Source of the DNA: Gillisia limnaea DSM 15749 | GTDB lineage: Bacteria > Bacteroidota > Bacteroidia > Flavobacteriales > Flavobacteriaceae | Assembly (NCBI RefSeq): GCF_000243235.1 | Contig: NZ_JH594606.1 | Location: 415,666-479,665, forward strand | DNA: 64,000 bases | Direction of reading: 5' to 3' | Shown here: positions 37,450 to 53,382 of the stretch, piece by piece | How positions within the stretch are numbered: the first letter of the stretch is position 1 | Layout: each line of letters begins with the position of its first letter | Notes under the pieces: generated by a model | The model's input: the letters and a program-made list of their open reading frames with translations, nothing else | Database searches by the model: none | Told to the model about the DNA's origin: nothing | Position numbers and translations under genes: made by a program

Positions 37450-38196
37450 ATGACTCAACCTATTCAAATATTAGTAGTTGAGGATGAAATGATCATCGCG
37501 GCCAATATTTCCATGCAGCTTACAGAAATGGGGTATGAAGTTTCAGGAATTATTCCCAGGGGGGAAGACGCCATAAGCCATATTAAAAACAACCTCCCGG
37601 ATATTGTGTTGATTGACATTCAACTTAAGGGAGAATTAGATGGAATAGAGACCGCCCAAAAGATGCAGGAATTCCATAATAATCTTGCCATTATCTACCT
37701 TACAGCAAATGCGGATGAGGCAAATTTTAACAGGGCTAAATTAACCCGTCCTTATGCTTTTATCTCCAAACCCTTTAAAAAATTAGATTTACAACGCAGT
37801 ATTGAGCTTACAATTCATCAATTAAAAAGTAATATCACTACCCCATCCAATGATTCTAAAAATGGGGCTTCCTCCTATATTTTAAAAGATTGCCTTTTTG
37901 TTAGACACCGTGAGACTATGGTAAAGTTAGATATTAAGGACATTCGGTATATTCAGGCAGAACGCAATTATTGCAGGATATTTTCAAATGAAAAGGAATA
38001 TTTGATAGTGACCACGCTTAAAGACATGGACGAAAAACTACCTCAAAAACATTTTTTAAGAATTCATAGATCTTACATTATCAATCTCTCCCAAATAGAC
38101 GAGATAGGCGGTACTCACGTAGTTATTTCCAGAAAAGCAATTCCTATGACTAAAGGAATGCGCACCGAGCTCTTAACAAGGCTACAGACCATCTAG
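37450..38196 (+). CDS. LytTR response regulator
   Basis: A 248-residue regulator. The receiver keeps the acidic pair (Glu11-Asp12), the phosphoacceptor Asp56 (VLIDIQLKG) and the lysine of AFISKPF. The C-terminal ~100 residues are a LytTR DNA-binding domain (DIRYIQAERNYCRIF, FLRIHRSYIINLSQI). It lies just upstream of a TPR/HisKA_2 kinase, the likely partner. A decayed copy of the same gene follows that kinase at 40596. Likely targets are the exported-protein genes downstream. Confidence 0.9.
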   Translation: MTQPIQILVVEDEMIIAANISMQLTEMGYEVSGIIPRGEDAISHIKNNLPDIVLIDIQLKGELDGIETAQKMQEFHNNLAIIYLTANADEANFNRAKLTRPYAFISKPFKKLDLQRSIELTIHQLKSNITTPSNDSKNGASSYILKDCLFVRHRETMVKLDIKDIRYIQAERNYCRIFSNEKEYLIVTTLKDMDEKLPQKHFLRIHRSYIINLSQIDEIGGTHVVISRKAIPMTKGMRTELLTRLQTI

Positions 38197-38345
38197 CTTA
38201 CCAAAAGGTACTTTGGGAACTTAATTAACCCCTTAGGACATTTTTAGGTTGCTTTCATCATAAGCTACTTGTTTTTAGATTTATACAGATTTACTTTTCT
38301 ATGAAATCAACTTAAAATCAGGAAATCATGAAAACCTGATTGCAA
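38170..38345 (+). repeat. Duplicated RR-3'-end/leader segment, copy A
   Basis: From the last codons of the LytTR gene this runs through ACTTTGGGAACTTAATT and CTACTTGTTTTTAGATTTAT to an ATGAAAACCTGA. The same order recurs at 40880-41045, where it leads into the intact gene at 41036. Here the reading frame stops after three codons. Confidence 0.75.
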
Positions 38346-38448
38346 ATAACAAAGGTTAAAACGATGTGTCTGCCGGAATAAAAAAGGAAGTCATTGGGTA
38401 GCCATATTACAAGCACCTTAATATCTATTATAATCTATCGCTTAGTGT

Positions 38449-40596
38449 ATGAAAGAACCTGTTAATATTTTACCGCCACCAGAATTAAGGGAATTTTTTA
38501 CCGGCTATGGCATTTTGGAAATTCCCAATGGAGTTGAAAATCCCTGCACATCCAAACCTATTGACTTAAATGGGACCAATATTCCTAGTCTTAATATAGG
38601 TAACATTATAATTGCCAAAAAAGAAGGTAAAGACCATTATAAGCATTCTTTCATGGCAACCGAACAGGTTTCCCAAACAGAATATTTCAGAAATGTTGGG
38701 CAAATAAGAATACTGCTCATCATTTTTCACCTGCTTTTTATGTTTTTTCACACTCACTCTGGTTTTTCACAGGATTCAAATGTGAAAGATTTGAATTCCA
38801 TTTTTGAATGGCTGGATATACATGAAAAAATACCTGCAGACTCCACTCAGCTAGGCGTGAATTCACATAAAGCTGTATTGCTGTCCAAAAAACTGAATAA
38901 CCAAAACGCCCTTGCTAAATCTTATTTACATCTGGCATATTATCACAAAGAATACTCAAAACTAGATTCTTCATTGGTTTACACCCTACAGGCAAAGGAT
39001 ATTTACAGCGCTTTAAAAAATGATTTAGACCTCGCCAAATCCTATCTAGCCTTAAAGGTAGTTTATACCCTCCAAACAGAGTATGGCCAGGCCACAGAAC
39101 AAGCTTATAAAGCTTTGGAGATTTTCCAAAAATTAAACAATCAAAAAGGAATTGCACAAAGCTACACACATATTTGTGGATTATTATATTACGAAAACGA
39201 ATATAGAACAGGAATCGATTTTTGCAACAAAGCCATTGAAATACTGGAAAATTTAGATTCAAAGGAAGATTTGGCATTGTCCTACCATAATAAAGCTTTT
39301 AACCAACTTTTTTCAGGAGATGATCTCAAAGATGCATTAGCAAATATTAATACAGCAATTAACCTTTACAATAGCATAGGTGAAAATGGTATTCCTTTAA
39401 TGGCATCCATAAACTGGCGTGGAAATATATACAAATATATGGGAGAGTATAAAGCCGCCATTGCCGATTACCAGGCGAATTTTGATAGATCAAGAGAAAT
39501 GGGTCTGCAACGATACCTCATCCCTTCTTTGGGTAATATTGGCCACGTGCTTTTAATGCAGGGAAAATATGAAGAAGCCCTCCCCTATAATTTAGAAGCC
39601 ATTGATATTATGATAAAAACAGGAAGAATAAGAAATCTTTGGGAAAACTATATGCACGTATCGTCAATTTATGAGTCCATGGGTGATTACAAAAATGCAT
39701 TGATATATAACAGGCTTTATGCAAGTGCATTTACAGAACTCAAAGAACGCGCCATCCAAAGTTTGGATGGTGAAATTCAGGCTAAATATGAAACCGGGCA
39801 AAAAAATGCCACCATCATCTTTCAAAATGAAAAAATAGCACAACAGCGCATAACACAAACTCTCTATATAATTCTCGTGGGTTTATTGGCATTTATTCTT
39901 TTTGGATTGTTCTATTATTACAATAAGCGCCAAAAGCGAAACAAAGAATTACTCGCATTAAATAACCAGTTAGATATCAAAAACAAGCAAAATGAATTGC
40001 TCCTTAAAGAAATTCACCACCGCGTAAAAAATAATTTAGAATTGGTTAAAAGTTTGATTTCGCTACAATCAGCCCAATTGGAAGATTCCGCAACCAAAGA
40101 TGTGATGATAGCCAGTCAAAACAGGGTACAATCCATGGCCATCATACATCAAAAATTATATCAGGGAGAAAATCCGGGAAGCATAGAAATGAAGGATTAT
40201 TTCCTAAATCTGGGCGAAGGCATCTTAGACACCTTTAATGCAGAAGATAAAGTGAAAATTGAATGCGTCATGGACAGCCTGGAGCTGGATGTGGACACGG
40301 CAGTGCCCATTGGTTTGATAGTTAATGAACTACTTACAAACGCCTTAAAATATGCGTTTCCTGAAGACAGAGATGGAACCATTCAAATAAGTTTATTCCA
40401 ATCAACACCGGAGACCTTATCCTTAACAGTGGCTGATAACGGTGTGGGTAAAATTATTGGGTTATCACCCCGGGGAACCGGTTTTGGCTCGAAATTAATA
40501 GATTTATTGACACAACAACTCAATGGCAGCATGATGGAAAATACTGAAAATGGCACTTTGGTAGAGTTTCAATTTAAAATCAAGAATGCAGCCTGA
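38449..40596 (+). CDS. TPR-containing HisKA_2 sensor histidine kinase
   Basis: A 715-residue membrane sensor. A hydrophobic signal or membrane segment lies at ~86-104, then six to seven TPR-like repeats (~120-450), a membrane helix (~475-495, LYIILVGLLAFILFGLF), the HisKA_2 helix LKEIHHRVKNNLELV (His523) and the HATPase domain (VNELLTNALKYAF, DNGVG). The first ~68 residues (MKEPVNILPP...) are unusual for the family; an ATG at 38653 would remove them. Paralog of the kinase at 51421. Probable partner of the LytTR regulator. Confidence 0.88.
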   Translation: MKEPVNILPPPELREFFTGYGILEIPNGVENPCTSKPIDLNGTNIPSLNIGNIIIAKKEGKDHYKHSFMATEQVSQTEYFRNVGQIRILLIIFHLLFMFFHTHSGFSQDSNVKDLNSIFEWLDIHEKIPADSTQLGVNSHKAVLLSKKLNNQNALAKSYLHLAYYHKEYSKLDSSLVYTLQAKDIYSALKNDLDLAKSYLALKVVYTLQTEYGQATEQAYKALEIFQKLNNQKGIAQSYTHICGLLYYENEYRTGIDFCNKAIEILENLDSKEDLALSYHNKAFNQLFSGDDLKDALANINTAINLYNSIGENGIPLMASINWRGNIYKYMGEYKAAIADYQANFDRSREMGLQRYLIPSLGNIGHVLLMQGKYEEALPYNLEAIDIMIKTGRIRNLWENYMHVSSIYESMGDYKNALIYNRLYASAFTELKERAIQSLDGEIQAKYETGQKNATIIFQNEKIAQQRITQTLYIILVGLLAFILFGLFYYYNKRQKRNKELLALNNQLDIKNKQNELLLKEIHHRVKNNLELVKSLISLQSAQLEDSATKDVMIASQNRVQSMAIIHQKLYQGENPGSIEMKDYFLNLGEGILDTFNAEDKVKIECVMDSLELDVDTAVPIGLIVNELLTNALKYAFPEDRDGTIQISLFQSTPETLSLTVADNGVGKIIGLSPRGTGFGSKLIDLLTQQLNGSMMENTENGTLVEFQFKIKNAA

Positions 40597-40905
40597 TGGA
40601 GAATCGTGCAAAAATATTGATTGCGGAAGACGAAATGCTATCATACAAAATATGGTCAGGAAGTTCTGGAACCAGTTAAACGAAAAAACTAAAACACAAT
40701 TTTAGTTGATGGTTAAGGTATAAAATAATCCTATATTAGTGCCGGTTCTCTTTTTCCAACAGCCAGGATAATTTGGCGAATTTTAACAGGGCTAAATTAC
40801 CCCATCCCCGTGCCTTTGTCTCCAAACCCTTTAAAAAAATTAGATTTACAATGTGGTATTGGGCTTGAGCTAAGAACTCTTAATAAGGCTACAGACCATT
40901 TAGCT
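40596..40905 (+). pseudogene. Decayed LytTR response regulator copy
   Basis: The ATG overlaps the kinase stop by one base (TGATG) and opens MENRAKILIAEDEML, the start of a receiver. After a breakdown, 40777-40860 matches the intact regulator (AATTTTAACAGGGCTAAATT..., then CTCCAAACCCTTTAAAAAA), and after an internal deletion of most of the LytTR domain the 3' end reappears (CTCTTAATAAGGCTACAGACC). Stops and indels rule out function. It was probably a regulator co-translated with the kinase. Confidence 0.85.
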
Positions 40906-41045
40906 AAGCAAAAATGCGCTTTGGGAACTTAATTGCCCTCTTAGGACATTCTCAGGCAGGCTTCATCCTAAACTACTTGTTTTCAGGTTTATACACACTT
41001 ACCTTGTTGTTAAATCAACTAAAAACCAAAGAATTATGAAAACAG
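40880..41045 (+). repeat. Duplicated leader segment, copy B (promoter region of 41036)
   Basis: Homologous to 38170-38345 by eye with about three quarters identity, including TTTGGGAACTTAATT, CTTAGGACATT and ACTACTTGTTTTCAGGTTTATACA. The conserved TTG then TA-rich box (TACCTTG) is a candidate promoter for the gene at 41036. Confidence 0.7.
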
Positions 41046-41806
41046 TAAATCTTATTGCTTTGCTCTCTATAGCAATGCTTTCGCAAACAAATGTACTCCT
41101 TGCCCAAAATGCCAATACAACGCAGGCATATTGGATCCATGAAGATCAGGTAAAACCTTCTATGGTCATGGAATATGAAGAGGTAAGTAAAGACTTTATT
41201 GCAGCATGCAAGGAACATGATCTTAAAGATGCGGACTGGTCTACCGCAAGTATCGACGACGGTACCTATTTAAGCATTTCGCCCATCACAAACATGGCCG
41301 ATTTCGATAAGAATCCCCTGGCGCCTTTAGCCGAAAAAATGGGTGAAGAAAAATTCCGCTCCCTTTTTACCCGGTTTGACAAATGCTATGATGTTCACAG
41401 GAACTATGTAGTTCATTTGATCAATGACATGTCTTATATGCCCAACGGGATTACCCCCAATACCCCCGGAGAGGATTATAGAAAATGGCATTACCTATAT
41501 GTTACCCCAGAAAATGTTGCAAACCTTCGAGATAAGATAAAGGATATAAAAGCCCTATATGAGAAAAAAGGAGCCAAAGAATACTTTAGGGTCTATCGCA
41601 GTGGCTTTGGTACCCCTGGGGATTACTTCCTTGTGGTAATTTCAGCAAAGGATGCGCAATCGTACGCTAAAACTTCCGCGGAAACTGATGTGCTTATGGG
41701 AGAAGAAGGCGAGAAATTATTCGATGAAATGATGAAATATGTTCATAAATATGAACCTAAAACTGGACGTATGCGTCCCGATCTGGGTTATGTGGCAAAA
41801 CTATAA
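41036..41806 (+). CDS. Secreted two-domain alpha/beta-barrel-like protein (unknown)
   Basis: A 256-residue exported protein (signal peptide to about residue 24, ...TNVLLAQ). The mature protein seems built of two halves, each with strand-helix-strand patterns and Tyr/Trp-rich strands (TQAYWIHEDQVKPSMVMEY; then RKWHYLYVTPENVANLRDKI), resembling dimeric alpha/beta-barrel (NIPSNAP/ABM-like) folds. No catalytic motif is evident. Two more exported proteins of similar length and layout follow at 44038 and 44964. First intact gene of the island after the regulators. Confidence 0.65.
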   Translation: MKTVNLIALLSIAMLSQTNVLLAQNANTTQAYWIHEDQVKPSMVMEYEEVSKDFIAACKEHDLKDADWSTASIDDGTYLSISPITNMADFDKNPLAPLAEKMGEEKFRSLFTRFDKCYDVHRNYVVHLINDMSYMPNGITPNTPGEDYRKWHYLYVTPENVANLRDKIKDIKALYEKKGAKEYFRVYRSGFGTPGDYFLVVISAKDAQSYAKTSAETDVLMGEEGEKLFDEMMKYVHKYEPKTGRMRPDLGYVAKL

Positions 41807-41927: not shown

Positions 41928-42344
41928 ATGAAAACCTTACAGATATATTTATTTCTTATAGTGCCTGTTTTGTCTACTTCAAACAATCTACAGGGACAAA
42001 ACAATAACAACCAGGAAATAATAAAAAACATATATGATGTCGTACAAAACCATAGTAAAACATCCAATGATCTGGCAGCTTTAACCCCTGGGATAAAATG
42101 GGATGAAGTAATAAACCCTAAGGAAATGAATGACAGGGACAATATTACATTCCCTGCGGTTATGCAAAACCAATGGGGACATGTTTTATTTAACAAGATT
42201 ATTTTTCAGGAAGTTGAACAGGATAAGGTTTTAGTCACCGGAACAGTAAATGGGCGCCAACCATCAGAATGTGAATTTGTCTCAACCCGCTTTAAACATT
42301 ACTGGACCATTAAGGATGGGCAGGTAATAAAATTTTTAGAATAA
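41928..42344 (+). CDS. Secreted NTF2/SnoaL-like protein
   Basis: A 138-residue exported protein; ATG at 41928 is used because it begins the signal peptide MKTLQIYLFLIVPVLSTSNNLQG. The remainder looks like a divergent NTF2/SnoaL cone fold, most clearly at the end (VLVTGTVNGR..., then FKHYWTIKDGQVIKFLE). Function unknown. Followed 18 bases later by another NTF2-like gene. Confidence 0.6.
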   Translation: MKTLQIYLFLIVPVLSTSNNLQGQNNNNQEIIKNIYDVVQNHSKTSNDLAALTPGIKWDEVINPKEMNDRDNITFPAVMQNQWGHVLFNKIIFQEVEQDKVLVTGTVNGRQPSECEFVSTRFKHYWTIKDGQVIKFLE

Positions 42345-42362: not shown

Positions 42363-42890
42363 ATGAAAAAACTAATATTATTAGGACTTGCAATACTACT
42401 CTTTACAGCCTGTGGTAAGAAAGATACACGCTACACGCAACAATCACCGGAGATAGACAGCTATAAAAAAGTTATTGAATCCTATGAAAAACAGGATTGG
42501 GAAGCTATGGCTAAATATTATGCAGATACAGCAAAAATCATGAACAATGTAATGGAGAAAGATGCCCAAACCTTTGCACAATTAATCGCCCAGAACAAGG
42601 AAGATGCAGCTTTGTTTTCCAGTTGGGATTTTGTAGATGCCGAATCTGAATATGAAATGGTTGTGACCGATGATGGGGAAACCTGGGTAAACTTTTGGGG
42701 CCTTTGGCAAGCCACTTTAAAAGCAAACAATCAATTGTACGAAATACCTGCACATATTACCGCGCGGTTTGTGGATGGTAAAATTGTAAGGGAAAACGGT
42801 TATTGGGATATATCAAAAATTGTATCCGATATACAAACCCTTGAGAATGCAGAAAAAAGCCAGTTGGAAGATGATTCAGTAAAAGAATAA
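42363..42890 (+). CDS. NTF2/SnoaL-like lipoprotein
   Basis: A 175-residue lipoprotein (signal MKKLILLGLAILLFTAC). Residues ~30-150 follow the NTF2/SnoaL pattern: an opening helix pair (SYKKVIESYEKQDWEAMAKYYADTAKI), then four strands with WVNFWGLWQATLK and HITARFVDGKIVRENGYWD. Closely spaced with the preceding gene. Such domains can be enzymes or ligand binders; no active-site residue can be assigned. Confidence 0.7.
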   Translation: MKKLILLGLAILLFTACGKKDTRYTQQSPEIDSYKKVIESYEKQDWEAMAKYYADTAKIMNNVMEKDAQTFAQLIAQNKEDAALFSSWDFVDAESEYEMVVTDDGETWVNFWGLWQATLKANNQLYEIPAHITARFVDGKIVRENGYWDISKIVSDIQTLENAEKSQLEDDSVKE

Positions 42891-42966: not shown

Positions 42967-43905
42967 ATGAAAACAGCAGGAATTATAGGTGGCTCAGGAT
43001 TTATAGGAAGCTATATAACCCGAAAATTTTTGGCAGAAGGATACAGGGTAAAAGTCTCGGTTACCGATATAAGCAAAAGTGAAAAGTACCAGCATCTTTT
43101 CGATTTCAAAAATTCTGACAATCTCAATATTCGCGGATTAAAACTAGAGGATATAGATACCTTACAGGATTTTATAAAGGATTGTGAAATTGTGGTACAC
43201 AGCGGTACTCCCTTTCAACTGGATGTTAAAGATCCAAAAAAAGAACTTTTAGATCCTACTATAAAAGGAACTGAAAATTTTCTTGAAGCTATAAGTCAGG
43301 CGCCAAATGTTGAAAAAGTGGTTTTCATAGCATCTGTAGCGGCCTGGAATACAGAATTCCCTATGCCGGCAGGCAGTAAAAGTTTTACAGATACATTCGA
43401 CGAACACGACACGAGATTCACTAGCGAACAGAGTCATCCCTATTGCCAGGCAAAATTTATTGCCAATCAAACGGTTGAGCAGTTTATAAAATCCCATCCC
43501 AATCTTAGGTATGAAATAACGACTGTGTCGCCCGTTTCGGTTATGGGAAAATCGTTATCATCCCGGGAAGACTCAACTTCCACCGGCATTCAATTTCTCA
43601 TCAAAAACAAGATTGCCCCAGATGATTTTATAAAATCGCTCTATGACAATGATGTACCCTTTGCGCTAGTTGATGTAGCCGACGTAGCAAACGCCACTTA
43701 CAAAGCAGCAACCACCAAAGGCTTACACGGTAAAGATTACCTCTTAACCAGTGAAACCTATAAAGTCTCTGATATTCACGAGATGCTCAACCATAGGGAA
43801 CCCAAAGAAAAAGGGCAGGTCATTTATATAAATAAGCTGGCAAAAACCGATTTAGAGATGCAATTCAGGCCGGTAAAGAAAACTTTGAACAGTTATTCAA
43901 CCTAA
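42967..43905 (+). CDS. NAD(P)-dependent epimerase/dehydratase-like (extended SDR)
   Basis: A 312-residue cytoplasmic enzyme of the extended or atypical SDR class. The N-terminal GGSGFIGSYI binds NAD(P); a Ser/Thr-rich VFIASVAAW strand and YCQAK (Tyr-x3-Lys, about residues 160-164) form the active site. Nearest types are dihydroflavonol-reductase-like or aldehyde-reductase-like SDRs. It is unusual as a cytoplasmic enzyme among exported neighbours. Substrate unknown. Confidence 0.82.
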   Translation: MKTAGIIGGSGFIGSYITRKFLAEGYRVKVSVTDISKSEKYQHLFDFKNSDNLNIRGLKLEDIDTLQDFIKDCEIVVHSGTPFQLDVKDPKKELLDPTIKGTENFLEAISQAPNVEKVVFIASVAAWNTEFPMPAGSKSFTDTFDEHDTRFTSEQSHPYCQAKFIANQTVEQFIKSHPNLRYEITTVSPVSVMGKSLSSREDSTSTGIQFLIKNKIAPDDFIKSLYDNDVPFALVDVADVANATYKAATTKGLHGKDYLLTSETYKVSDIHEMLNHREPKEKGQVIYINKLAKTDLEMQFRPVKKTLNSYST

Positions 43906-44037
43906 CAACAGGCAAAATGAAAGCATCAAAATCCATTATTCCTATCCAATTGCTTTTTGATTTGAAATTCGCCGCTTCAATTTCCAATGACGCTATTAAA
44001 AAATACTGAAAAACCACATTAATTTAAAATCTATATC

Positions 44038-44820
44038 ATGAAAAAATTACTAATTCTTATCGCACTACTATTGTTGAGCAACCAAGGTTTCGCACAGGAC
44101 AAACTTTATTTAATATTCGAGTTTATGAAAGTGGACAATGAGCAGGAAGCAGCTTATATGGAAACGGAAGCATTTTGGGAGAAAATTCAGGAACAACGGG
44201 TTAAAAATGGTGATATTTTGGGATGGGACCTTTGGAGTTTGCAACCCGGAGGAGAGGATCAGGGATATCAATACCTAACGGTAAACCTTTATAACGATCC
44301 TCTCAAAATGATGAGCAACGCAGGGAATTTTGAGACGGCTCTAAAAACGGCTTATCCCAACATGTCTGAAGATGATCTCAATAAAAAATTTGAAAATACC
44401 GCAAAATCGAGGGGCCTGGCAAAACGCGTATATCTTGAGCAAATAGCCACTACAAAAGGCAACTTTGATATGCCTTTGGGCACAGTTGCAGGAATAAATT
44501 TAATGAAAGTATCTAATGGAGATTATGAGAAATACGAAAAATTTGAAACAGAAATTTTCCAGCCTATGCATCAAAAAGAGGTTGATGCGGGAATCAGGGG
44601 AAATTGGGGTTTGCTGCGGTATATGTTGCCGGTTGGAAGTGATGTTTACGCCTCCCATATAACAGTAGACATGTACAAGGATTACAATCAATTATTTAAT
44701 GTAGGAGCCACAGATGGACCAGCAATGTCTGAAGATCAAATTCAAAAAATTCAGGGAGGTTTAGCAACGAGGGATCTGAAATATAAATATATGGCTACAC
44801 TTATAAGAAAGGTGCGATAA
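44038..44820 (+). CDS. Secreted two-domain alpha/beta-barrel-like protein (unknown)
   Basis: A 260-residue exported protein (signal MKKLLILIALLLLSNQGFAQ). Two halves are visible: LYLIFEFMKVDNEQEAAYME to NLYNDPLKMM, and PLGTVAGINLMKVSNGDYEK to TVDMYKDYNQLF. Each opens with a strand and a helix carrying acidic and aromatic residues, as in NIPSNAP/ABM-like folds. No named family assigned. Its layout parallels the proteins at 41036 and 44964. Confidence 0.62.
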   Translation: MKKLLILIALLLLSNQGFAQDKLYLIFEFMKVDNEQEAAYMETEAFWEKIQEQRVKNGDILGWDLWSLQPGGEDQGYQYLTVNLYNDPLKMMSNAGNFETALKTAYPNMSEDDLNKKFENTAKSRGLAKRVYLEQIATTKGNFDMPLGTVAGINLMKVSNGDYEKYEKFETEIFQPMHQKEVDAGIRGNWGLLRYMLPVGSDVYASHITVDMYKDYNQLFNVGATDGPAMSEDQIQKIQGGLATRDLKYKYMATLIRKVR

Positions 44821-44963: not shown

Positions 44964-45734
44964 ATGAGAAAAATAATCTTTACGATGCTTTTATTGCCGT
45001 TTTTGGCACTATCGCAAAACAGTACCGAATACGGAGTATTCGAAAATGCACTATTAACGCCTAACCCAACTCAAATTAGCCAATTTGAAAAAGGAATTAC
45101 TGCACATAACAAAAAATTTCACGGTGATGGCCCTTACGGGGCACGTGTTTATTGGATTTCCAACGGGCCAAACACAGGTAATTATGTATGGTCCATGGGA
45201 CCTTTTCCGTGGAGCTCTTTAGATAACAGACCCGCCCAAGAAGAAGGTCATGATGCTGATTGGAATAATAATGTAGCTCCATACATGACAGCCGAAAGTG
45301 GCACCCAGAGCTATTGGCGTGGACACAATGAACTCTCAAGGTTCCCAAAAGACTTCACCATTAAGAATTTGTTGGTAGATTATTACGACGTCAAACGATT
45401 CAAAATGGATGATGCCAAGAAATTAGTCGAAAAAGTAAATAAAGTATATGCCGAAAAAAGTCAGGAGGACACGTATGGCATTTACACCAACGAATTTGGA
45501 AGCACCAAAGAAGGTCGCGATTTAGCAGTTATTTCATTTTTTGATAAATCAGGTTGGTTAAGTCGGGACAATGACTTTGCCACAAAATATGAAAGTTTAT
45601 ATGGTAAAGGCAGTTGGGAACAATTCGGAAAAGATTGGTTTGCCGTGACCGACGGCGGTGAAAGTGAACTTTGGATTTTCCGTCCAGATTTGAGTGGCAT
45701 CAGTGGCGATGTAAAAGTTGCCGAAAGGGAATAA
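44964..45734 (+). CDS. Secreted two-domain alpha/beta-barrel-like protein (unknown)
   Basis: A 256-residue exported protein (signal MRKIIFTMLLLPFLALSQ). First half: FEKGITAHNKKFHGDGPYGA and a Trp-rich block (NYVWSMGPFPWSSLDNRP, DADWNNNVAPY). Second half: NLLVDYYDVKRFKMDDAKKL to DLAVISFFDKSGWL. No catalytic motif recognised. Ends in an intrinsic terminator, so it closes the first transcription unit of the island. Confidence 0.62.
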   Translation: MRKIIFTMLLLPFLALSQNSTEYGVFENALLTPNPTQISQFEKGITAHNKKFHGDGPYGARVYWISNGPNTGNYVWSMGPFPWSSLDNRPAQEEGHDADWNNNVAPYMTAESGTQSYWRGHNELSRFPKDFTIKNLLVDYYDVKRFKMDDAKKLVEKVNKVYAEKSQEDTYGIYTNEFGSTKEGRDLAVISFFDKSGWLSRDNDFATKYESLYGKGSWEQFGKDWFAVTDGGESELWIFRPDLSGISGDVKVAERE

Positions 45735-46421: not shown

Positions 46422-46838
46422 ATGAAATCATACGAACCTGAAAAACCTGAAACACCAGAATATTTCCAACTTCGACCAGAAGTTGAAAAAGCATTTGGAT
46501 ATTCCCACGCAGTAAAAATCGGGAACCATATAAAAATTTCCGGAGCCGTGAGTATGGATGACCAGGGCAATCCAACCGCTGTAGGCGATTTTGAACAGCA
46601 AATGAAAAATTGTTATTCTGATCTCGGGAAGATCCTGAAAAAATACGGATGCACATTTGATAATGTGATTGTGGAAAATGTCTTTACAACCAAAATGCCC
46701 TTGTTTCTTGAGCATGCCGCCTACAGAAATTCTATATATAAAAACCACTTTCCAACAGGTTCCTGGCTTGGTGTGAAGGATTTAGCCCTACCAGAATTTA
46801 TGATAGAAATAGAACTGGAAGTACATAAAGCAGAATAA
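46422..46838 (+). CDS. RidA/YjgF-family protein
   Basis: A 138-residue cytoplasmic RidA-family protein. Typical blocks are HAVKIGNHIKISGAVSMDD, the helix DFEQQMKNCYSDLGKILKK, VENVFTTKM and the C-terminal FMIEIELEVHKAE. Classical RidA enzymes hydrolyse reactive enamines/imines using an Arg and Glu near the C-terminus; here the equivalent segment reads LPEFMIEIELEV, without the usual RxxVEIE arginine, so deaminase activity is uncertain and it may be an Rid subfamily member with another role. Confidence 0.82.
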   Translation: MKSYEPEKPETPEYFQLRPEVEKAFGYSHAVKIGNHIKISGAVSMDDQGNPTAVGDFEQQMKNCYSDLGKILKKYGCTFDNVIVENVFTTKMPLFLEHAAYRNSIYKNHFPTGSWLGVKDLALPEFMIEIELEVHKAE

Positions 46839-46885: not shown

Positions 46886-47725
46886 ATGAAGCATTCAAAA
46901 ATTATACAGACATTATTACTTTTCGTTCTCATTGCACTGCCATCATCTACAGCTATAGCACAGAATGCTGAAGTGGAAAAAATACATCAATTGTACATCA
47001 ATACCATTAAATCGGCTAATCTCAACAATTTAGATGCACTATATACACAAGATGCTTCCATAAGAAATTCTGACGGAAGCATGGTCTCAGGTTTGGACAA
47101 TATCAAAGCACAATATAAGGATGTGTTTTCCTCGGGAAAATATAGCATTACCTTAAAAACCATGGATGAAGCAGTACTGGATAAGGAGTACATCTTTGTA
47201 AGCGGTTCTTATGTTTATACCAAAATGGATGAGCCAAAAATGGTTTTAAAAGGTGAATTTGTGAACACCCTAAAAAAAGTAATGGGAGATTGGAAAATCT
47301 ACAAAAGCTATCGCTATTCTGAAAATACAAATAACGCTAGTGTGGTTGATGGTTTGTACAAAGCCTTTGCCGTAGGCGATGTGCCTTCAGTTTTGGGTGC
47401 TATGGATGCTGGAATCGTTTGGAACGAAGCCGAAGGCAATGCCTACGCAGATGGCAATCCTTACATAGGCCCTGATGCTGTATTAAATGGTGTTTTTGCC
47501 AGAGTGATTGGAGATCATGAATACTTCACCCTAGAAGATATCAAATTGCACGAGATGAGCAATAACAAAGTACTCGCCACCTTACGCTACAATGCCAAAA
47601 ACAAAGCAACCGGCAAAGCCTATAACGCAGAGGTTGCTCATTTGTGGACTTTAAGAGACGGAAAGATTATCGCCTTTCAACAGTATGTAGATACCAAGAA
47701 ACTTGCAGATGCAGAGAAAAAATAA
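46886..47725 (+). CDS. Secreted protein with two tandem NTF2/SnoaL-like domains
   Basis: A 279-residue exported protein (signal to about residue 26, ...SSTAIAQ). Domain 1 (~28-148) is DUF4440/SnoaL-like: IHQLYINTIKSANLNNLDAL then YTQDASIRNSDGSM. Domain 2 (~152-275) is SnoaL-like: GLYKAFAVGDVPSVLGAMDA, then HLWTLRDGKIIAFQQYVDTK. The 3' end (QQYVDTKKLADAE) recurs in decayed form at 49303-49341. The dehydrogenase gene follows 26 bases later. Confidence 0.75.
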   Translation: MKHSKIIQTLLLFVLIALPSSTAIAQNAEVEKIHQLYINTIKSANLNNLDALYTQDASIRNSDGSMVSGLDNIKAQYKDVFSSGKYSITLKTMDEAVLDKEYIFVSGSYVYTKMDEPKMVLKGEFVNTLKKVMGDWKIYKSYRYSENTNNASVVDGLYKAFAVGDVPSVLGAMDAGIVWNEAEGNAYADGNPYIGPDAVLNGVFARVIGDHEYFTLEDIKLHEMSNNKVLATLRYNAKNKATGKAYNAEVAHLWTLRDGKIIAFQQYVDTKKLADAEKK

Positions 47726-47751: not shown

Positions 47752-48606
47752 ATGAAAACTGCACTAATTACAGGAACAAGCAAAGGCATCGGCCTTGAAA
47801 CCGCATTGGCATTCGGACGCGCAGGGTACAAAGTATTTGCGACCATGCGAAATCCAGCTATGGCCGACGATTTTAGACAAAAAATAAATACAGAATCCCT
47901 TGACATCAGTATTTCAGAAATGGATGTGGATTCCGATGCATCAGTTAAACAGTGTATCAATGGCATCATCCAAAAGCATGGACAAATCGATGTACTGGTC
48001 AACAATGCAGGCATCGAACGTCATGGTTCTATCGAAGAATTGGCAATGGACGATTTCAAAGCCATTATGGAAACCAATTATTTTGGAGTACTGCGATGTA
48101 CGAAGACATTGATACCACAAATGAGGAAGAATCGAAAGGGCTGTATTATTAATGTTGCTTCCGTTGCCGGACATATTTCCAACAGTCCATTGGGTGCTTA
48201 TGCCGCAAGCAAATTTGCACTCGAGGCCGTTAGTGAGGCACTTGCCCAAGAAGTAAAACCTTTTAACATTAGGGTTGCCATTGTGGAACCAGGAATCATA
48301 AACACACAAATGGCCAATGATCTTTCAGTTGATGGGAACTCAATTTATCCACATTCCAAACGTATGGCAGGATTATTTTCAGCATCCCTTCAAACGCCAA
48401 CACCACCAACACTAGTGGCAGACAAGATTTTGGAAATCGCAGAAAGCAACACTTGGAAATTAAGACATCCTGTTGGTCCTGATGCTGAACCCTTCATTCA
48501 ATGGAGAAGGTCATTGACCGATGAAGAATGGGTGGATTGGAATGCCGCCAATGATGACGATTGGTATGAAGCAGTTCAAAATACATTTGGATTGGATGCC
48601 AGATAG
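47752..48606 (+). CDS. Classical short-chain dehydrogenase/reductase
   Basis: A 284-residue cytoplasmic SDR. The cofactor motif TGTSKGIG (residues 7-14), the NNAG motif, the SVAG strand (catalytic Ser) and YAASK (Tyr and Lys) are all present. ATG 47752 is taken; the frame opens further upstream only inside the previous gene. The C-terminal ~50 residues are duplicated as a 156-bp fragment at 49142. Substrate unknown. Confidence 0.9.
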   Translation: MKTALITGTSKGIGLETALAFGRAGYKVFATMRNPAMADDFRQKINTESLDISISEMDVDSDASVKQCINGIIQKHGQIDVLVNNAGIERHGSIEELAMDDFKAIMETNYFGVLRCTKTLIPQMRKNRKGCIINVASVAGHISNSPLGAYAASKFALEAVSEALAQEVKPFNIRVAIVEPGIINTQMANDLSVDGNSIYPHSKRMAGLFSASLQTPTPPTLVADKILEIAESNTWKLRHPVGPDAEPFIQWRRSLTDEEWVDWNAANDDDWYEAVQNTFGLDAR

Positions 48607-48676
48607 ATGATATTTCCGCACTTTGCCGGGACCAAAAAGAGTGCAAATGCGGATAACAAATGGCACGTATCAATGG

Positions 48677-48741: not shown

Positions 48742-49011
48742 ATGAAAAAAACAATCGTAACGAGACACAGAGTAGGAAATTTTGACACTTGGCTAAAAGG
48801 CCACCAAGACAGACTCGATATATTTGGTCCTGCAATGTCAGGCCTTAAAACGTTTCAGGATGCCAATGATCCCAATTCGGTAGTTATGGTTATAGAAGTT
48901 ACCGATATGGACAAGTTTGAAGCTATCTTAAAGGACCCTTCAAACGATACTCTGAAAAAGAAACATACAGTATTGGAGCCAATCACTCTTTCTATGCAAG
49001 TAGAGCCTTAA
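48742..49011 (+). CDS. Small ABM-like (dimeric alpha/beta barrel) protein
   Basis: An 89-residue cytoplasmic protein. Layout is one ferredoxin-like alpha/beta barrel half: TIVTRHRVGNFDTWLKGHQD (strand and helix), SGLKTFQDANDPNSVVMVIE, DMDKFEAILKDPSNDTLKKK, ending ITLSMQV. This resembles antibiotic-biosynthesis-monooxygenase-like folds. No active residue assigned. Preceded by the 47-bp repeat. Confidence 0.65.
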   Translation: MKKTIVTRHRVGNFDTWLKGHQDRLDIFGPAMSGLKTFQDANDPNSVVMVIEVTDMDKFEAILKDPSNDTLKKKHTVLEPITLSMQVEP

Positions 49012-49141
49012 GTATTAGGAATTGCTTTTAGTTTATGTATTACTAATGCATAAGTCTATGAATAGTATCAATAATTTCATGAACGGATGGATAGCAAAAA
49101 CTAAATGTTGATTCGTTTTATATCAAGAATAGAAATTATTT

Positions 49142-49297
49142 GAAATTAAGACATCCTGTGGGTCCAGATGCTGAACCCTTCATTCAATGGAGAAGGTCAA
49201 TGACAGATGAAGCATGGGTGGATTGGAATGCTGTCAATGATGATGATTGGTATGAAGCGATTCAAAATACATTTGGATTGGATGGAAGATAGATGAT
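49142..49297 (+). pseudogene. Duplicated 3' fragment of the SDR gene
   Basis: 156 bases nearly identical (about 90 percent by eye) to 48456-48611, covering the SDR C-terminus to its stop, with the same terminal AGATAGATGAT. The upstream three quarters of the gene are missing. Directly after it, 49303-49341 resembles the 3' end of the double NTF2 gene (CAATATGCAGATACTAAAAA). Confidence 0.88.
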
Positions 49298-49549
49298 TAA
49301 TCGGCAATATGCAGATACTAAAAAAAGTGGTGATGCCGAGAATATAATAGATACAGAGTATTTATAATACAGACTATTAAAGTAACGTGAATAATGGATA
49401 AGTCTGAAAAGACCGGATTTTTCTTTTCCCCGGCTCTCTAAAGGGCGGAAAAATCCTCAAATACAATTATGGTTGAGAAAATTATTACCCTTTAGGGCTA
49501 GGGAAATATAATTTTCGGCTTAAAAAGGTTAATCCCCTATTCAGATTAT

Positions 49550-49615: not shown

Positions 49616-50143
49616 ATGAACACAAAGAACTTTTTTAAACTTGCAACGGTAGTCCTTGCAACGTCCATTTTCACTATTGGTTGTAACTCGCAACCTGATA
49701 AAAAAACTGCCGATGAACCAGCTGTAACGGCACAACCAGCAGTTGTTAAGGCCGATATGGCCAGTATAAAAGCCGAGATACAAGCCTTGGAAAGTGCGTG
49801 GGCAGCAGCTGATAATGCTCGTGATGTAAATGCAGTTGCCGCTTTTTATTCTGAAGATGCGGTGAGTATGTCCAATAATGCCCCGATGGCAAAAGGAAAA
49901 GCTGCTATCCAAAAGGAACTAGAAGTAGGTATGGCAAAAAAAGCTGAAGGTGAAACTGTTTCCTACAATACCCTTGAGGTATTTGGTGATGAAAACACAG
50001 TGACCGAGATTGGCACATCAACATCCAAAGATGCATCGGGCAAAGTAAGCAGATCGGGCAAATATATGGCGATCTGGGAAAAGCGTGACGGAAAATATAT
50101 ATGCATCAGGGACATCTACAATGATGACACTTTAGTAAAATAG
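49616..50143 (+). CDS. DUF4440/SgcJ-like NTF2-fold lipoprotein
   Basis: A 175-residue lipoprotein (signal ends TIGC). After a Pro/Ala/Thr-rich linker, residues ~48-172 are a DUF4440-type NTF2 domain: IKAEIQALESAWAAADNARD, VAAFYSEDAVSM, KGKAAIQKEL, SGKYMAIWEKRDGKYICIRD. Such domains are compact and may bind small hydrophobic ligands. It ends with a strong terminator, so it closes the second unit of the island. Confidence 0.8.
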   Translation: MNTKNFFKLATVVLATSIFTIGCNSQPDKKTADEPAVTAQPAVVKADMASIKAEIQALESAWAAADNARDVNAVAAFYSEDAVSMSNNAPMAKGKAAIQKELEVGMAKKAEGETVSYNTLEVFGDENTVTEIGTSTSKDASGKVSRSGKYMAIWEKRDGKYICIRDIYNDDTLVK

Positions 50144-50154
50144 TTTAAAAGTAT

Positions 50155-50211
50155 GTGTTTATACCGAGAGCGTATTTTGAATTGCCCCCTCGGTATAAAC
50201 ACTATTTTTTT
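50155..50211 (+). terminator. Intrinsic terminator
   Basis: GTGTTTATACCGAG pairs exactly with CTCGGTATAAACAC over 14 bp around a 20-base loop and is followed by a T tract. Confidence 0.85.
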
Positions 50212-50318
50212 GTCAAAAATTAATGTTCCAAAACAAACACATGATGATTTTCAGAAGTTTTTGGGATGTCAGATTGCAAAGTATCATTCCTATAAAAACT
50301 TCGAATAAAAGTATCCTT

Positions 50319-50414
50319 ATGAAAAAAATAATCCTATTCTTTATGGCCATTTCCTTTTTTGTAATCCTCCTAGCACAAGAAACCAACACTTTTATTTTTA
50401 ACCATATCGCATAA
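50319..50414 (+). pseudogene. Orphan signal-peptide fragment
   Basis: ATG at 50319 gives MKKIILFFMAISFFVILLAQ and then only ~11 residues before a stop. It reads as the start of an exported protein whose body is lost, next to the decayed transporter gene. Confidence 0.4.
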
Positions 50415-50448
50415 TCAATAAAAAGGATTTACTTTTAGAAATAAATTG

Positions 50449-51069
50449 ATTTTAAGCCTATTAGCACTGACGTTTGCAGGTGTTACTTATGGTTTAATTG
50501 CGCTAGGTTGAGGTTTTAATGAAATGTCTGCCTGCTTTTCCGTTTTAGGCTTGGCTTGTGGCAGTATTGCTGGCTTTAGCTTAAATAAAACTACCGAAGT
50601 TTATCTAGACGTTTTAAAGAAATGGTTTTTGCGGCATTAATTATTGGGTTAGCAAATAGTGTATCTGTTATTTCAAAGGATGGGATGGTGATTGATTCTA
50701 TCGTTAACGGACTATTCGGTCCTTTAGAGCATCTTCCGGCAGCTTTATCGGCAGTGCTAATGATGGTCTCATGCCGTGAGACATTTTCCGATACCTAGCA
50801 CCTCAGGCCATGCAATTTTAACCATGCCAATCCTAAGCCCTTTCGCAGATTTAATTGGCTTATCGCGGCAAGTTTGTGTGCTTGCGTATCAGTATGGTGC
50901 CATTATGATGGATTTAATTGTACCCACCAATGGCGCTACAATGGCGGTAATTGCATTGGCTGGTATCAACTATAAAAATTGGTTGAAATTTATTGTTAAA
51001 CCAGTTTTAATTATGCTGGGTATTGGAGCTGTGGTGATTTTAAGAGCCGTACAAATTGGATATAGTTAA
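50449..51069 (+). pseudogene. Decayed YfcC-type membrane transporter (3' part)
   Basis: Across three frames the translation gives a continuous C-terminal half of a YfcC/DcuC-like carrier: LILSLLALTFAGVTYGLIAL, an in-frame TGA in place of a Trp codon, FSVLGLACGSIAGFSLNKTT, a frameshift near 50615, EMVFAALIIGLANSVSVISK, a second shift near 50775, then HFPIPSTSGHAILTMPILSP and YQYGAIMMDLIVPTNGATMA. The N-terminal half is missing. It would have carried peptides or carboxylates; now non-functional. Confidence 0.82.
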
Positions 51070-51141
51070 AAGTAGACGAATGCTACAGCTAGTTAAAACA
51101 CCCTTTTTAGACCATTTTATACTTAAAATTGAAAGTAAACT

Positions 51142-51443
51142 ATGATTAAATTCTTCCGAAACATCCGCAAAAAACTCATAGAGCAAGGCAAAACCACCAA
51201 ATATCTCAAATACGCAATTGGCGAAATCATCCTCGTGATTGTTGGGATTTTAATTGCGTTGAGTATTAACAATTGGAACGACCAAAAAAACAAAACACCA
51301 GAGAGGTTGCCTATTTGAAAAACCTGCACGACGATGTTGCTTCCCAAATAAGAACATTTGAATTCAACTTGAAAATGGAAACAATTATTATTAGCGATGT
51401 AAATGATATTTTACAGCACATCATACAGCCTTATGCACTTTAA
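51142..51443 (+). pseudogene. DUF6090-like gene, frameshifted and truncated
   Basis: MIKFFRNIRKKLIEQGKTTK, then YLKYAIGEIILVIVGILIAL, is the typical start of the DUF6090 membrane proteins of Flavobacteriia. A frameshift near 51298 stops the frame; the next frame resumes with TREVAYLKNLHDDVASQIRT and ends inside the 3' end of the opposite-strand kinase gene. The normal protein is about 250 residues; only ~100 remain. Confidence 0.8.
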
Positions 51444-53382
51444 ATTCAAATAAATACTGTGTTCCAGGGGTGTGAATAACCTGCCTAGTCCCATCCAGCT
51501 GCTTGGTAAGCAGTTCAATAAGTTTTTTGCCAAAGCCCGTGCCTTTTATGGGTCCATCCCTGGTTTGTCCAATGCCGTTATCCTTTACTAATAATTGAAT
51601 ATTTTCAGCAGATTTCCGGCTTAAATCAATAGTGATAACCCCTTGCCTTTCATTTGGAAACGCGTATTTAAGGCTATTGGTTAGTAGTTCGTTCACTATT
51701 AATCCTAAAGGCACGGCGGTGTCTACGTCCAGATGCAGTTCCGCCATTTTATAGTTGATTTTAATGCGTTCCTCTTCCCCAAAAGAATCCAAAATGTGAG
51801 TGCCAAGATTGAAAAAATAGTCCTTCATCTCAATGGTGGAAAGATGGTTGCTTTGGTATAACCGCTGGTGAATAATACTCATAGAATACACCCTGTTTTG
51901 GCTCTCTTTCATGGCACTCACTACATTGGGATCTTTAACTTGAGCGGTTTGAAGTGCCAAAAGACTGGAAACCACTTCGAGATTGTTTTTAACTCTATGA
52001 TGGATTTCCTTCAGTAAAAACTCCTTTTCTTTATTTTGTTTCCTCAAACGCTTATTTTTCTTCCTGTTATTCCTGAAACTAATAAATAACACCAATAAAA
52101 ACAGTAACAACAAGCTTGCAATTAGGCTAATAAGATTCTGACTCGTTTTTTGTTGTAGCAGTTTTGTTTCCTGAAGTTGTATTGTATTCTCTTTTTGGGC
52201 AACTTCAAACTCGGTTTGAAGCCGGGAGATTCGTTGATCTGCTTCCGCGGTGAAGACAATTCTATTCAGGGAATCATATTCAGAAAATGCTTTATAAGCC
52301 TCTTGATACTGCTCATTCTTAGCATAAGCTTTCCCCAGGCTATTATAGGCTTTACTTAGAAAAAATCCGTCTCCAAAATTTGGAGTAGCTACCTCGATTG
52401 ATTTTTGAATATTTTCTATGGCGCCCGGATAGTTTCCGTTGTCACTTTGCAGCTCCCCAACAGAAAGATAAGAACGCATCAGCATAAAAGCGTTATCCAG
52501 AAGATAGGCGTATTTTATAGCGTTCTTTCCGGCCTCTTCGGCTTTGTTTAGTTGATTCAAAAACGCATAAAGATCTACAAGGGAAATATAAACATCGCTT
52601 AAATTATTATAAAAACCATAGTGTTCCCCAATCTCTATAGAACGTTCATAGTATTCCATAGCTTTATCATACTGTTTAAGGCTTAAGTAATTGTTGCCAA
52701 CGATATAAAGTGTGAAATCGTAATCAAGATCGTTCAATCCAAGTTCTTCAAAGAAAGAAAGTGACTTTAAGCCATATTCCAAACCTTCCTCATATTTACC
52801 CTGCTTCCAAAACAGGTTGCTAAGATCGCTATAGGCAATTCCAAGTGCTTTTTTGTCATTTAGTTTTTCTCCTAATCGGAAAGTTTTCAGGGCATAATCT
52901 GCTGCTCGTCCCAGTTGTCCCCGGCGTTCATACACATAGCCCAACTGGGTATTAAGGAAAGCAAAATCGGTTTCTTCAACTTTTTTGGCAGCCTCCAGCA
53001 GGATTACCTCCGCAGTATCCAGTTTTTCCTGTCTTAATAAAATTGCACCCTGGGTAATTTGAAATCTCCCGTGCCAGAGACCATTGTTCTTCTCATTAGT
53101 GAGTTTCAAACCTTTTTCGGTAAAACCTAAGGCTGTGGTCAGGTTTCTTGTATGCCAGTAATAGGCCAGATCATTTAAAACAGTAAATTTTAAGGTATCT
53201 GTTTCAATTTTATCCAAAGCATCTTCCAGAATCTGCAAATAGGAAACATCAAAATCATCGGTTTCTACAAATACCTTTTTGTAAGGATCAGGTTTACTGA
53301 AATCGAAGATCTGCCCATTGCCGGATGAGCTAAAAAGCACTACAAAGAAAAGCGCTAAAATGATATTTTTTCCTGTAATCAA
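51421..53382 (-). CDS. TPR-containing HisKA_2 sensor histidine kinase
   Basis: A 653-residue sensor paralogous to 38449. It starts with TTG (53380-53382), followed by the signal ITGKNIILALFFVVLFSSS; an in-frame TAA lies three codons upstream and no ATG is near. TPR repeats fill ~60-400, a membrane helix lies at ~415-435 (LISLIASLLLLFLLVLFISF), and the kinase part has LKEIHHRVKNNLEVV and VNELLTNSLKYAF with DNGIG. No response regulator lies beside it, so it may signal to the LytTR regulator at 37450. It marks the right edge of the exported-protein island. Confidence 0.88.
   Translation of the reverse strand: MITGKNIILALFFVVLFSSSGNGQIFDFSKPDPYKKVFVETDDFDVSYLQILEDALDKIETDTLKFTVLNDLAYYWHTRNLTTALGFTEKGLKLTNEKNNGLWHGRFQITQGAILLRQEKLDTAEVILLEAAKKVEETDFAFLNTQLGYVYERRGQLGRAADYALKTFRLGEKLNDKKALGIAYSDLSNLFWKQGKYEEGLEYGLKSLSFFEELGLNDLDYDFTLYIVGNNYLSLKQYDKAMEYYERSIEIGEHYGFYNNLSDVYISLVDLYAFLNQLNKAEEAGKNAIKYAYLLDNAFMLMRSYLSVGELQSDNGNYPGAIENIQKSIEVATPNFGDGFFLSKAYNSLGKAYAKNEQYQEAYKAFSEYDSLNRIVFTAEADQRISRLQTEFEVAQKENTIQLQETKLLQQKTSQNLISLIASLLLLFLLVLFISFRNNRKKNKRLRKQNKEKEFLLKEIHHRVKNNLEVVSSLLALQTAQVKDPNVVSAMKESQNRVYSMSIIHQRLYQSNHLSTIEMKDYFFNLGTHILDSFGEEERIKINYKMAELHLDVDTAVPLGLIVNELLTNSLKYAFPNERQGVITIDLSRKSAENIQLLVKDNGIGQTRDGPIKGTGFGKKLIELLTKQLDGTRQVIHTPGTQYLFEFKVHKAV

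What the first reader, a model, noticed from the sequence alone, without database searches (positions are those of the whole stretch)
37450..53382. Island of exported NTF2-like and barrel-like proteins bracketed by paralogous TPR sensor kinases
Between two paralogous TPR/HisKA_2 kinases, with one LytTR regulator, lie four exported NTF2/SnoaL-like proteins (41928, 42363, 46886, 49616), three exported ~256-260 residue proteins with two similar halves (41036, 44038, 44964), two SDR enzymes, a RidA-type protein and an ABM-like protein. None are typical of a known pathway in this combination. The pattern suggests a signal-controlled system for a small, possibly hydrophobic or reactive molecule handled in the periplasm, with redox steps in the cytoplasm; the molecule is unknown. 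This is the best candidate for an undescribed system here.
Basis: partly seen in the sequence, partly recalled or inferred. Interest (0 to 1): 0.72.

Follow-up and report, generated by a model that had tools for sequence, protein, structure and literature searches.

The report
Flavobacterial LytTR regulon of exported barrels
This stretch of a bacterial genome carries a regulator, two sensor kinases and a set of small proteins, most of them predicted to be exported, that recur together in related bacteria behind one shared DNA motif, so they are likely switched on together to process an unknown small molecule.

Summary
What ties them is a predicted operator of three direct repeats (TTCGATAA, TTCGGACA, TTCGTCCT) exactly 21 bp apart, followed at fixed distance by a -7-type promoter box. 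In the window's own 3.97-Mb genome the only two strong copies lie in the island, before HK1 and before the exported protein at 41036. Across 249 family genomes, 48 of 51 with an orthologue of the LytTR regulator have the operator, against 1 of 198 without. Searching by operator alone returns the same protein kinds: the first gene is a tandem-ABM, NTF2-like or SDR relative in 47 of 58 cases. Two of the three ~256-260-residue proteins are predicted tandem dimeric alpha/beta barrels, nearest to anthrone-oxidase-like, PenE and sulfur oxygenase reductase structures. Binding, activation, catalysis and substrate are inferred. Best reading: a LytTR two-component regulon, not described in the papers I could search, for extracytoplasmic processing of an aromatic or polyketide-like molecule.

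The parts
37450..38196 (+). LytTR response regulator (receiver + LytTR), predicted activator of the regulon
   Evidence: Pfam Response_reg 4e-20, LytTR 1.9e-19; orthologue in 51 of 249 family genomes, 48 of them with the operator
38212..38259 (+). operator copy 1, between regulator and HK1
   Evidence: profile R1 E 7.4e-5 in own genome; PWM 32.5; inside a 133-nt direct repeat shared with copy 2
38449..40596 (+). HK1, TPR/HisKA_2 sensor kinase
   Evidence: Pfam; 34.5% to HK2
40755..40866 (+). remnant of the regulator's 3' half, left by duplication
   Evidence: blastx to RR family; repeats D3, D6, D7
40920..40971 (+). operator copy 2, before 41036, with TACCTTG at 41000 in the -7 position
   Evidence: R1 E 3.9e-5; PWM 36.9; sequence
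41036..41806 (+). barA: predicted exported, predicted tandem dimeric alpha/beta barrel (ABM-like) protein
41928..42344 (+). predicted exported small protein, weak SnoaL/NTF2 signal
   Evidence: SnoaL_2 E 0.2 only; family in 6 of 42 sources
42363..42890 (+). NTF2/SnoaL protein with lipoprotein-like start
   Evidence: SnoaL_2 4.4e-6, above cut-off
42967..43905 (+). extended SDR (epimerase / 3-beta-HSD type), no signal peptide
   Evidence: Pfam Epimerase 2.3e-19; family in 12 of 42 sources, 0 of 12 with signal-peptide-like start
43972..44028 (+). short remnant resembling an exported cupin-like protein of relatives
   Evidence: blastx E 0.003 to family F18, itself only Cupin_2 E 0.069; weak
44038..44820 (+). 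barB: predicted exported, predicted tandem dimeric alpha/beta barrel protein
44964..45734 (+). barC: predicted exported, barA-like
   Evidence: hhalign to barA probability 90.7; NIPSNAP only E 0.13; not modelled
46422..46838 (+). Rid-family protein; lipoprotein-like in most relatives, no signal here
   Evidence: Ribonuc_L-PSP 4.3e-19; 8 of 13 family members with signal-peptide-like start, this one not
46886..47725 (+). predicted exported double NTF2 protein; conserved C-terminal SnoaL_2 domain
   Evidence: SnoaL_2 1.5e-15, DUF4440 3e-10
47752..48606 (+). classical SDR
   Evidence: adh_short 3.3e-57
48742..49011 (+).
   Evidence: family in 4 of 42 sources
49139..49342 (+). duplicate of the SDR (47752) tail
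   Evidence: 204-nt repeat, 86%; blastx 82%
49616..50143 (+). NTF2 protein (DUF4440) with lipoprotein-like start
   Evidence: DUF4440 4.9e-14
51142..51309 (+). DUF6090-like N-terminal remnant; intact DUF6090 genes follow the operator elsewhere
   Evidence: blastx 3e-18; DUF6090 in 7 of 84 operator-downstream proteins
51421..53382 (-). HK2, TPR/HisKA_2 kinase, orthologue of the kinase in relatives
   Evidence: Pfam; 58-80% identity where nearly its full length matches in relatives' islands
53546..53598 (+). weak third operator, TTAATTAG at 53628 in the -7 position, before the Crp-type gene
   Evidence: PWM 15.7; sequence; not reported by R1
53670..54416 (+). Crp/FNR-type regulator, possible regulon member
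   Evidence: cNMP_binding 4.9e-9, HTH_Crp_2 1.3e-7

Best explanation
The island is one unit of a predicted regulon that recurs across Flavobacteriaceae, in which a TPR sensor kinase likely phosphorylates the LytTR regulator, which is predicted to bind three direct repeats 21 bp apart and switch on predicted-exported tandem-barrel and NTF2-like proteins that would chemically process an aromatic or polyketide-like small molecule outside the cytoplasm. Shown by sequence: the recurring gene set, the repeated motif, its fixed spacing to a -7-type box, its confinement (strong copies) to the island in this genome, and its co-occurrence with the regulator. Predicted: the barrel folds and export. Inferred: phosphorylation, binding, activation, catalysis, the substrate and the signal. 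The SDR enzymes lack signal peptides, so their steps would be cytoplasmic; HK1 behind operator copy 1 would give feedback.
For: Gene set: of 42 sources (window + 41 loci) the families occur in: 44038-type 40, RR 25, HK 22, 41036-type 21, 42363-type 14, Rid 13, SDR-42967 12, 44964-type 11. Operator: 32 of 155 upstream regions of island families, 0 of 385 of other genes in the same loci, spacer constant in 32 of 32. Window genome: two sites, E 3.9e-5 and 7.4e-5, both in the island, next E 0.95. Co-occurrence 48 of 51 v. 1 of 198, Fisher 1.5e-46. Content found by operator alone: in 37 genomes none of whose sites went into the model, 47 of 58 operators with a gene have as first gene a tandem-ABM (25), NTF2-type (20) or SDR (2) relative (two of the 47 are trivial, as G242's locus was also in the reference set as L040); of 29 operators more than 10 kb from the regulator, on another contig, or in G300 where no regulator orthologue was found, 17 still do. 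First gene signal-peptide-like in 48 of 58. Two columns of the -7 box, outside the matrix, reach 1.5 and 1.9 bits. SnoaL_2 in 11 of 84 operator-downstream proteins; not among the 25 commonest families of 84 control proteins. Published LytTR operators (PlnC/D) are two 9-bp repeats with a 12-bp spacer, i.e. 21 bp apart, directly upstream of the promoter (PMC2714321, passages read). Aromatic theme: further operator-downstream genes include O-methyltransferase, arylsulfotransferase, molybdopterin oxidase, RPE65-type oxygenase, EthD, cyclase.
Against: No binding, expression or activity data. Operator and regulator are often neighbours, so part of the co-occurrence is linkage; 'another contig' in a draft genome does not prove distance. 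Three regulator genomes lack a detected operator (G009, G255, G264) and one operator genome lacks the regulator (G300). Four Lutibacter loci keep the gene set with neither regulator nor operator in the stretch fetched, carrying a large sensor-like protein instead (the rest of those genomes was not searched). Twelve loci hold 44038 without the regulator or other island genes at useful identity: seven Christiangramia, L026, L028, L029, L037, L038. 11 of 58 first genes match no island family. The aromatic theme rests on family names of genes in other genomes, several of them not first in line; other targets (SMP-30, patatin, DUF6090, TPR-adenylate cyclases, discoidin-like, subtilase) do not point to aromatics. 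Fold similarity does not show function. The signal-peptide call is a home-made rule.
Confidence: 0.6

Rival explanations
1. The same regulon, but a general envelope or starvation response: the exported barrels and NTF2 proteins bind or scavenge many small molecules, or are structural, rather than forming a pathway for one compound class.
For: Operator-downstream genes are diverse (SMP-30, patatin, DUF6090, TPR-adenylate cyclases, a subtilase); gene order and content vary from locus to locus.
Against: The first genes are mostly of two kinds, tandem-ABM and NTF2 (45 of 58), with SDRs following repeatedly; both folds are typical of small-molecule enzymes (recalled).
Confidence: 0.25
2. A biosynthetic cluster: the exported barrels, cyclase-like NTF2 proteins, SDRs and O-methyltransferases tailor a secreted metabolite made by the cell.
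For: Nearest folds and families include tailoring enzymes of aromatic polyketides (anthrone oxidase-like, PenE, SnoaL, Methyltransf_2).
Against: No ketosynthase, acyl carrier protein or other scaffold-making enzyme among the 17 window genes scanned; tailoring enzymes of known clusters act in the cytoplasm (recalled).
Confidence: 0.12
3. The operator belongs to another regulator that is co-inherited with the LytTR gene.
For: Operator and LytTR gene are often adjacent, and four Lutibacter loci carry the gene set with a different sensor.
Against: 25 of 63 operators (G300's four set aside) lie more than 10 kb from the regulator or on another contig in genomes that have it; repeat spacing matches LytTR operators.
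Confidence: 0.07
4. A chance accumulation of unrelated exported genes.
For: Remnants and duplications show an unstable region.
Against: Recurrence and shared operator.
Confidence: 0.01

Closest known systems
LytTR two-component systems with direct-repeat operators (PlnC/PlnD; AgrA recalled)
   Same: Receiver + LytTR regulator; direct repeats 21 bp apart just upstream of the promoter (PMC2714321 passages)
   Different: A third upstream repeat; HisKA_2 kinase with TPR region instead of the peptide-sensing kinase type (recalled); targets are exported barrel and NTF2 proteins, not bacteriocins or toxins
Tandem ABM / dimeric alpha/beta barrel proteins (anthrone oxidase-like 5f9p, PenE 9kdp, sulfur oxygenase reductase, 2pgc)
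   Different: 5-14% sequence identity in those alignments; predicted signal peptide; no Pfam family
SnoaL/NTF2 cyclase-like proteins
   Same: Pfam domain above cut-off in three of four
   Different: Predicted exported or lipoprotein; one C-terminal domain is joined to different N-terminal parts (cupin-like, DUF4440, NTF2) in different genera
Aromatic polyketide tailoring gene sets
   Same: Mix of ABM-like, SnoaL, SDR and, in relatives, O-methyltransferase
   Different: No scaffold-making enzymes among the genes scanned; export signals

Membership tests
LytTR two-component system | receiver domain joined to LytTR DNA-binding domain | tested here: met
LytTR two-component system | direct-repeat operator, 21 bp start to start, upstream of target promoters | tested here: met
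   by sequence; compared with PMC2714321
LytTR two-component system | histidine kinase encoded with the regulator | tested here: met
LytTR two-component system | regulator binds the operator and activates | not testable with these tools
   co-occurrence only
Tandem ABM / dimeric alpha/beta barrel proteins | two ferredoxin-like halves forming the barrel fold | tested here: met
   predicted models of 44038 and 41036
Tandem ABM / dimeric alpha/beta barrel proteins | match to a Pfam ABM, NIPSNAP or EthD model above cut-off | tested here: not met
   none above cut-off for 41036, 44038, 44964, 48742
Tandem ABM / dimeric alpha/beta barrel proteins | monooxygenase activity | not testable with these tools
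   no assay
SnoaL/NTF2 superfamily | SnoaL_2 or DUF4440 domain above cut-off | tested here: met
   42363, 46886, 49616; not 41928
Type II polyketide biosynthetic cluster | ketosynthase/chain-length factor and acyl carrier protein | tested here: not met
   absent from the 17 window genes scanned
Polysaccharide utilisation locus | SusC/SusD pair with glycan-degrading enzymes | tested here: not met
   absent from the 17 window genes scanned

The most novel reading that the evidence does not exclude
Flavobacteriaceae carry a dedicated extracytoplasmic pathway in which exported tandem-ABM oxygenases and NTF2 cyclases or isomerases act on phenolic or polyketide-like molecules outside the cytoplasm, under a LytTR system with a three-repeat operator: aromatic tailoring chemistry moved out of the cytoplasm and put under external sensing.
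Probability: 0.3. Interest if true: 0.85.

Novelty: new variant of a known kind. Interest (0 to 1): 0.7.

Why it matters
It turns a list of hypothetical proteins into a testable regulon: one regulator, one operator and a recurrent set of targets in about a fifth of the family's genomes sampled (49 of 249). Protein families without a Pfam entry, and DUF6090, gain a regulatory context, and the operator can be used to find further members. If the exported barrels are enzymes, oxidative aromatic chemistry usually placed in the cytoplasm would occur in the periplasm or outer membrane of widespread bacteria.

Tried and rejected
Chance accumulation: rejected. Naming from Pfam/NCBIfam alone: no family above cut-off for the three ~256-residue proteins or 48742. 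Sequence comparison of 44038 with 41036 and 44964: only the signal peptide and a weak N-terminal match, so their kinship rests on folds. An operator-like look of the 57-nt leader shared by 48742 and 49616 (48677, 49550): it is a segmental repeat and is not among the 12 best matrix hits of the window. A fourth matrix hit at 34557 inside menD scores 8.8, near the best background score of 8.3. One of the 20 control stretches did hold a strong site (L067, 37.0), before a gene that looks by eye like a prolyl oligopeptidase, in G040, a genome with many operators; I count it as a real site, not as background. Literature: seven searches listed no paper that describes this regulon by title or abstract, and none of the papers held contains DUF6090; the library is open-licence PMC only. 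PMC10197871 (passages read) reports LytTR-regulator and kinase mutations in F. johnsoniae co-evolved with Burkholderia thailandensis; I did not test whether that regulator is this one. PMC6222199 and PMC5395568: passages read, not informative here. Closest-structure lists also name heme-binding relatives (chlorite dismutase, HemQ); heme binding was not tested.

Rows dropped or limited: L036 left out of the family counts (same record as L010); L011-L015 left out of clustering as weak-hit loci. A4 used 21 of 26 full-length sites to thin close relatives. In one search, operator-downstream proteins under 80 or over 1200 residues were left out, at most four per operator kept, and the 84 control proteins were drawn from 340. 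Five of 63 operators had no gene by the 350-bp rule. The family search was 249 genomes drawn evenly from a larger group, with Infernal's stricter filters. Same-genus stretches: 10 taken of 13 other genomes with a menD match. First-gene labels such as the 44964 type include distant matches of 25-40% identity. Foldseek and VIA tables show 50 rows each. The family label Flavobacteriaceae for the unnamed group f1 rests on G052 and G242 matching named records of Maribacter (L036) and Pareuzebyella (L040).
Full report

THE GENE SET RECURS. Searching genome contigs with 44038 alone gave 40 loci; two more came from whole genomes. In the window plus 41 of these loci the families count as follows: 44038-type 40, regulator 25, kinase 22, 41036-type 21, 42363-type 14, Rid 13, SDR-42967 12, 44964-type 11, SDR-47752 6, 41928-type 6, 49616-type 5, 48742-type 4. 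Named hosts include Salegentibacter, Maribacter, Arenibacter, Pricia, Confluentibacter, Lutibacter and Flavobacterium. In 20 stretches of 20 kb from relatives no island protein matched at 40% identity or more; the matches listed are at 22-34%. Loci also carry further predicted-exported proteins: cupin-like (Cupin_2 E 0.069 only), VOC-like (by eye), NTF2 and ABM-type. One C-terminal SnoaL_2 domain is fused to a DUF4440, a cupin-like or an NTF2 part in different genera. Twelve loci, among them seven of Christiangramia, have 44038 without the set.

PLACE IN THE GENOME. Of 13 other same-genus genomes with a menD match I took the flanking 20 kb in 10: all 10 keep menD, menF and the thioesterase, none holds an island gene there. 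None of 15 other genomes of the genus has 44038 (some are incomplete). One (G010) has a regulator orthologue, operators and 41036-type genes at another place. The island is therefore patchy; lateral gain is likely but not proven.

THE OPERATOR. Comparing upstream regions in these loci gave a motif present in 32 of 155 island-family upstreams and 0 of 385 others, with a constant 14-base gap between GGACA and the following half in 32 of 32. On 78 sites, and again on 63 sites from genomes not used to build it, the consensus is three direct repeats TTCGATAA, TTCGGACA, TTCGTCCT starting at columns 2, 23 and 44, exactly 21 bp apart, then a T[a/t]..TT box at fixed distance. That box lies outside the scoring matrix, so its information (columns of 1.2, 1.0, 1.5 and 1.9 bits on the 63 sites) is independent support. 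Operator end to start codon is 85 bp in the median (58 operators). LytTR regulators PlnC/D bind two 9-bp repeats with a 12-bp spacer directly upstream of the promoter (PMC2714321, passages read): the same 21-bp step.

SPECIFICITY. In the window's genome the profile gives two sites, 40920 (E 3.9e-5) and 38212 (E 7.4e-5), and then nothing better than E 0.95. Both have a -7-like box at the right distance (TACCTTG, TACTTTT). A weaker third site at 53546 (matrix score 15.7; in the 20 control stretches the best scores are 8.3 and one strong site of 37.0, which I take as real) has TTAATTAG at the same distance and lies before the Crp-type gene 53670; it did not appear in the profile search, so I treat it as suggestive.

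THE REGULATOR TRACKS THE OPERATOR. Of 249 family genomes, 51 have a regulator orthologue (E 1e-60 or better) and 49 the operator (E 1e-3 or better); 48 have both (Fisher 1.5e-46, which treats genomes as independent). Exceptions: G009, G255 and G264 (regulator only), G300 (operator only). In a first set of 99 relatives, overlapping the second, 13 of 14 regulator genomes had it, and 2 of 85 others gave weak partial matches. In the locus set, 25 of 25 loci with a regulator orthologue have the operator and 1 of 17 without (L028, a 5-kb contig; part of these trained the matrix, and L036 repeats L010). Four Lutibacter loci lack both within the stretch fetched and carry a ~1377-residue sensor-like protein instead (not Pfam-tested). 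Because regulator and operator are often adjacent, linkage explains part of this. But 29 of 63 further operators are more than 10 kb from the regulator, on another contig, or in G300 (four of the 29), and 17 of the 27 of these with a gene still precede a tandem-ABM or NTF2 gene.

WHAT THE OPERATOR CONTROLS. Taking operators in 37 further genomes without looking at gene content, 47 of 58 first genes belong to island families: tandem-ABM 25, NTF2-type 20, SDR 2; 11 match none. Two of the 47 come from G242, whose locus (L040) was in the reference set. 48 of 58 first genes have a signal-peptide-like start. Among 84 operator-downstream proteins in the first relatives, SnoaL_2 occurs in 11, DUF6090 in 7, Epimerase in 6 and adenylate/guanylate cyclase in 3; in 84 control proteins none of these is among the 25 commonest families. 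Signal-peptide-like starts: 50 v. 27 of 84. Other operator-downstream genes include O-methyltransferase, a molybdopterin oxidase pair, cyclase, EthD, GMC oxidoreductase, arylsulfotransferase, RPE65-type oxygenase with a flavin oxidase, SMP-30 and glucose/sorbosone dehydrogenase, some of them third or later in line. Many are typical of aromatic or terpenoid chemistry (recalled); several are not.

LOCAL HISTORY. A 133-nt repeat (38203 / 40911) and three shorter ones show that the regulator's 3' end plus operator were duplicated around HK1; the copy before 41036 keeps a regulator remnant. A second duplication copied the tail of SDR 47752 and a 57-nt leader before 49616. In two of five Salegentibacter loci (L019, L024) the HK2-type kinase at the far end is the only one found, so HK2 is likely the original partner.

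MECHANISM AND CERTAINTY. I commit to: TPR kinase, then LytTR regulator, then operator, then exported tandem-barrel and NTF2 proteins plus cytoplasmic SDRs, processing an aromatic or polyketide-like molecule. The regulon I hold at about 0.9; small-molecule chemistry about 0.65; the aromatic class alone about 0.4. The 0.6 given above is for the regulon with extracytoplasmic small-molecule processing; the rivals overlap with it and with each other. Nothing here was measured.

NOVELTY. LytTR systems and both folds are known; I found no description of this target set, the three-repeat operator or its spread in seven searches of the open-licence library. I call it a new variant of a known kind.

Noticed in passing
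L141, L148, L149 (G040, G057): Operators precede TPR proteins; 3 of the 84 operator-downstream proteins scanned carry an adenylate/guanylate cyclase domain (one seen directly, L141:2918), some next to small exported proteins and HD-like proteins: a possible cyclic-nucleotide branch, and the window has a Crp-type gene behind a weak operator.
   Followed up: partly
window 38203-38335 and 40911-41043: Segmental duplication of regulator 3' end and operator around HK1, leaving a relic start codon of the 41036-type gene at 38328 before HK1.
   Followed up: yes
window 48453-48656 / 49139-49342 and 48677 / 49550: Second segmental duplication: SDR tail and a 57-nt leader shared by genes 48742 and 49616.
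   Followed up: partly
window 50595-51042: Decayed piece of a ~500-residue protein (like L025:18724), beside a DUF6090-like remnant.
   Followed up: no
window 46422-46838: The Rid protein has W where I recall the catalytic Arg of RidA; most relatives look like lipoproteins, this copy has no signal.
   Followed up: no
L021, L022, L027, L049 (Lutibacter): Gene set kept while regulator and operator are absent from the stretch fetched and a ~1377-residue sensor-like protein lies upstream: a possible regulator swap.
   Followed up: partly
window 56166-57984: Two overlapping frames look by eye like one lipoprotein gene with a frame break.
   Followed up: no
L158 (G040), L043: Several DUF6090-type genes side by side, some behind operator-like sites in L158.
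   Followed up: no
L023, L038: Loci titled Lentimicrobium and Cyclobacteriaceae MAGs hold 44038-type genes (L023 with regulator, kinase and operator): either spread beyond the family or binning errors.
   Followed up: no
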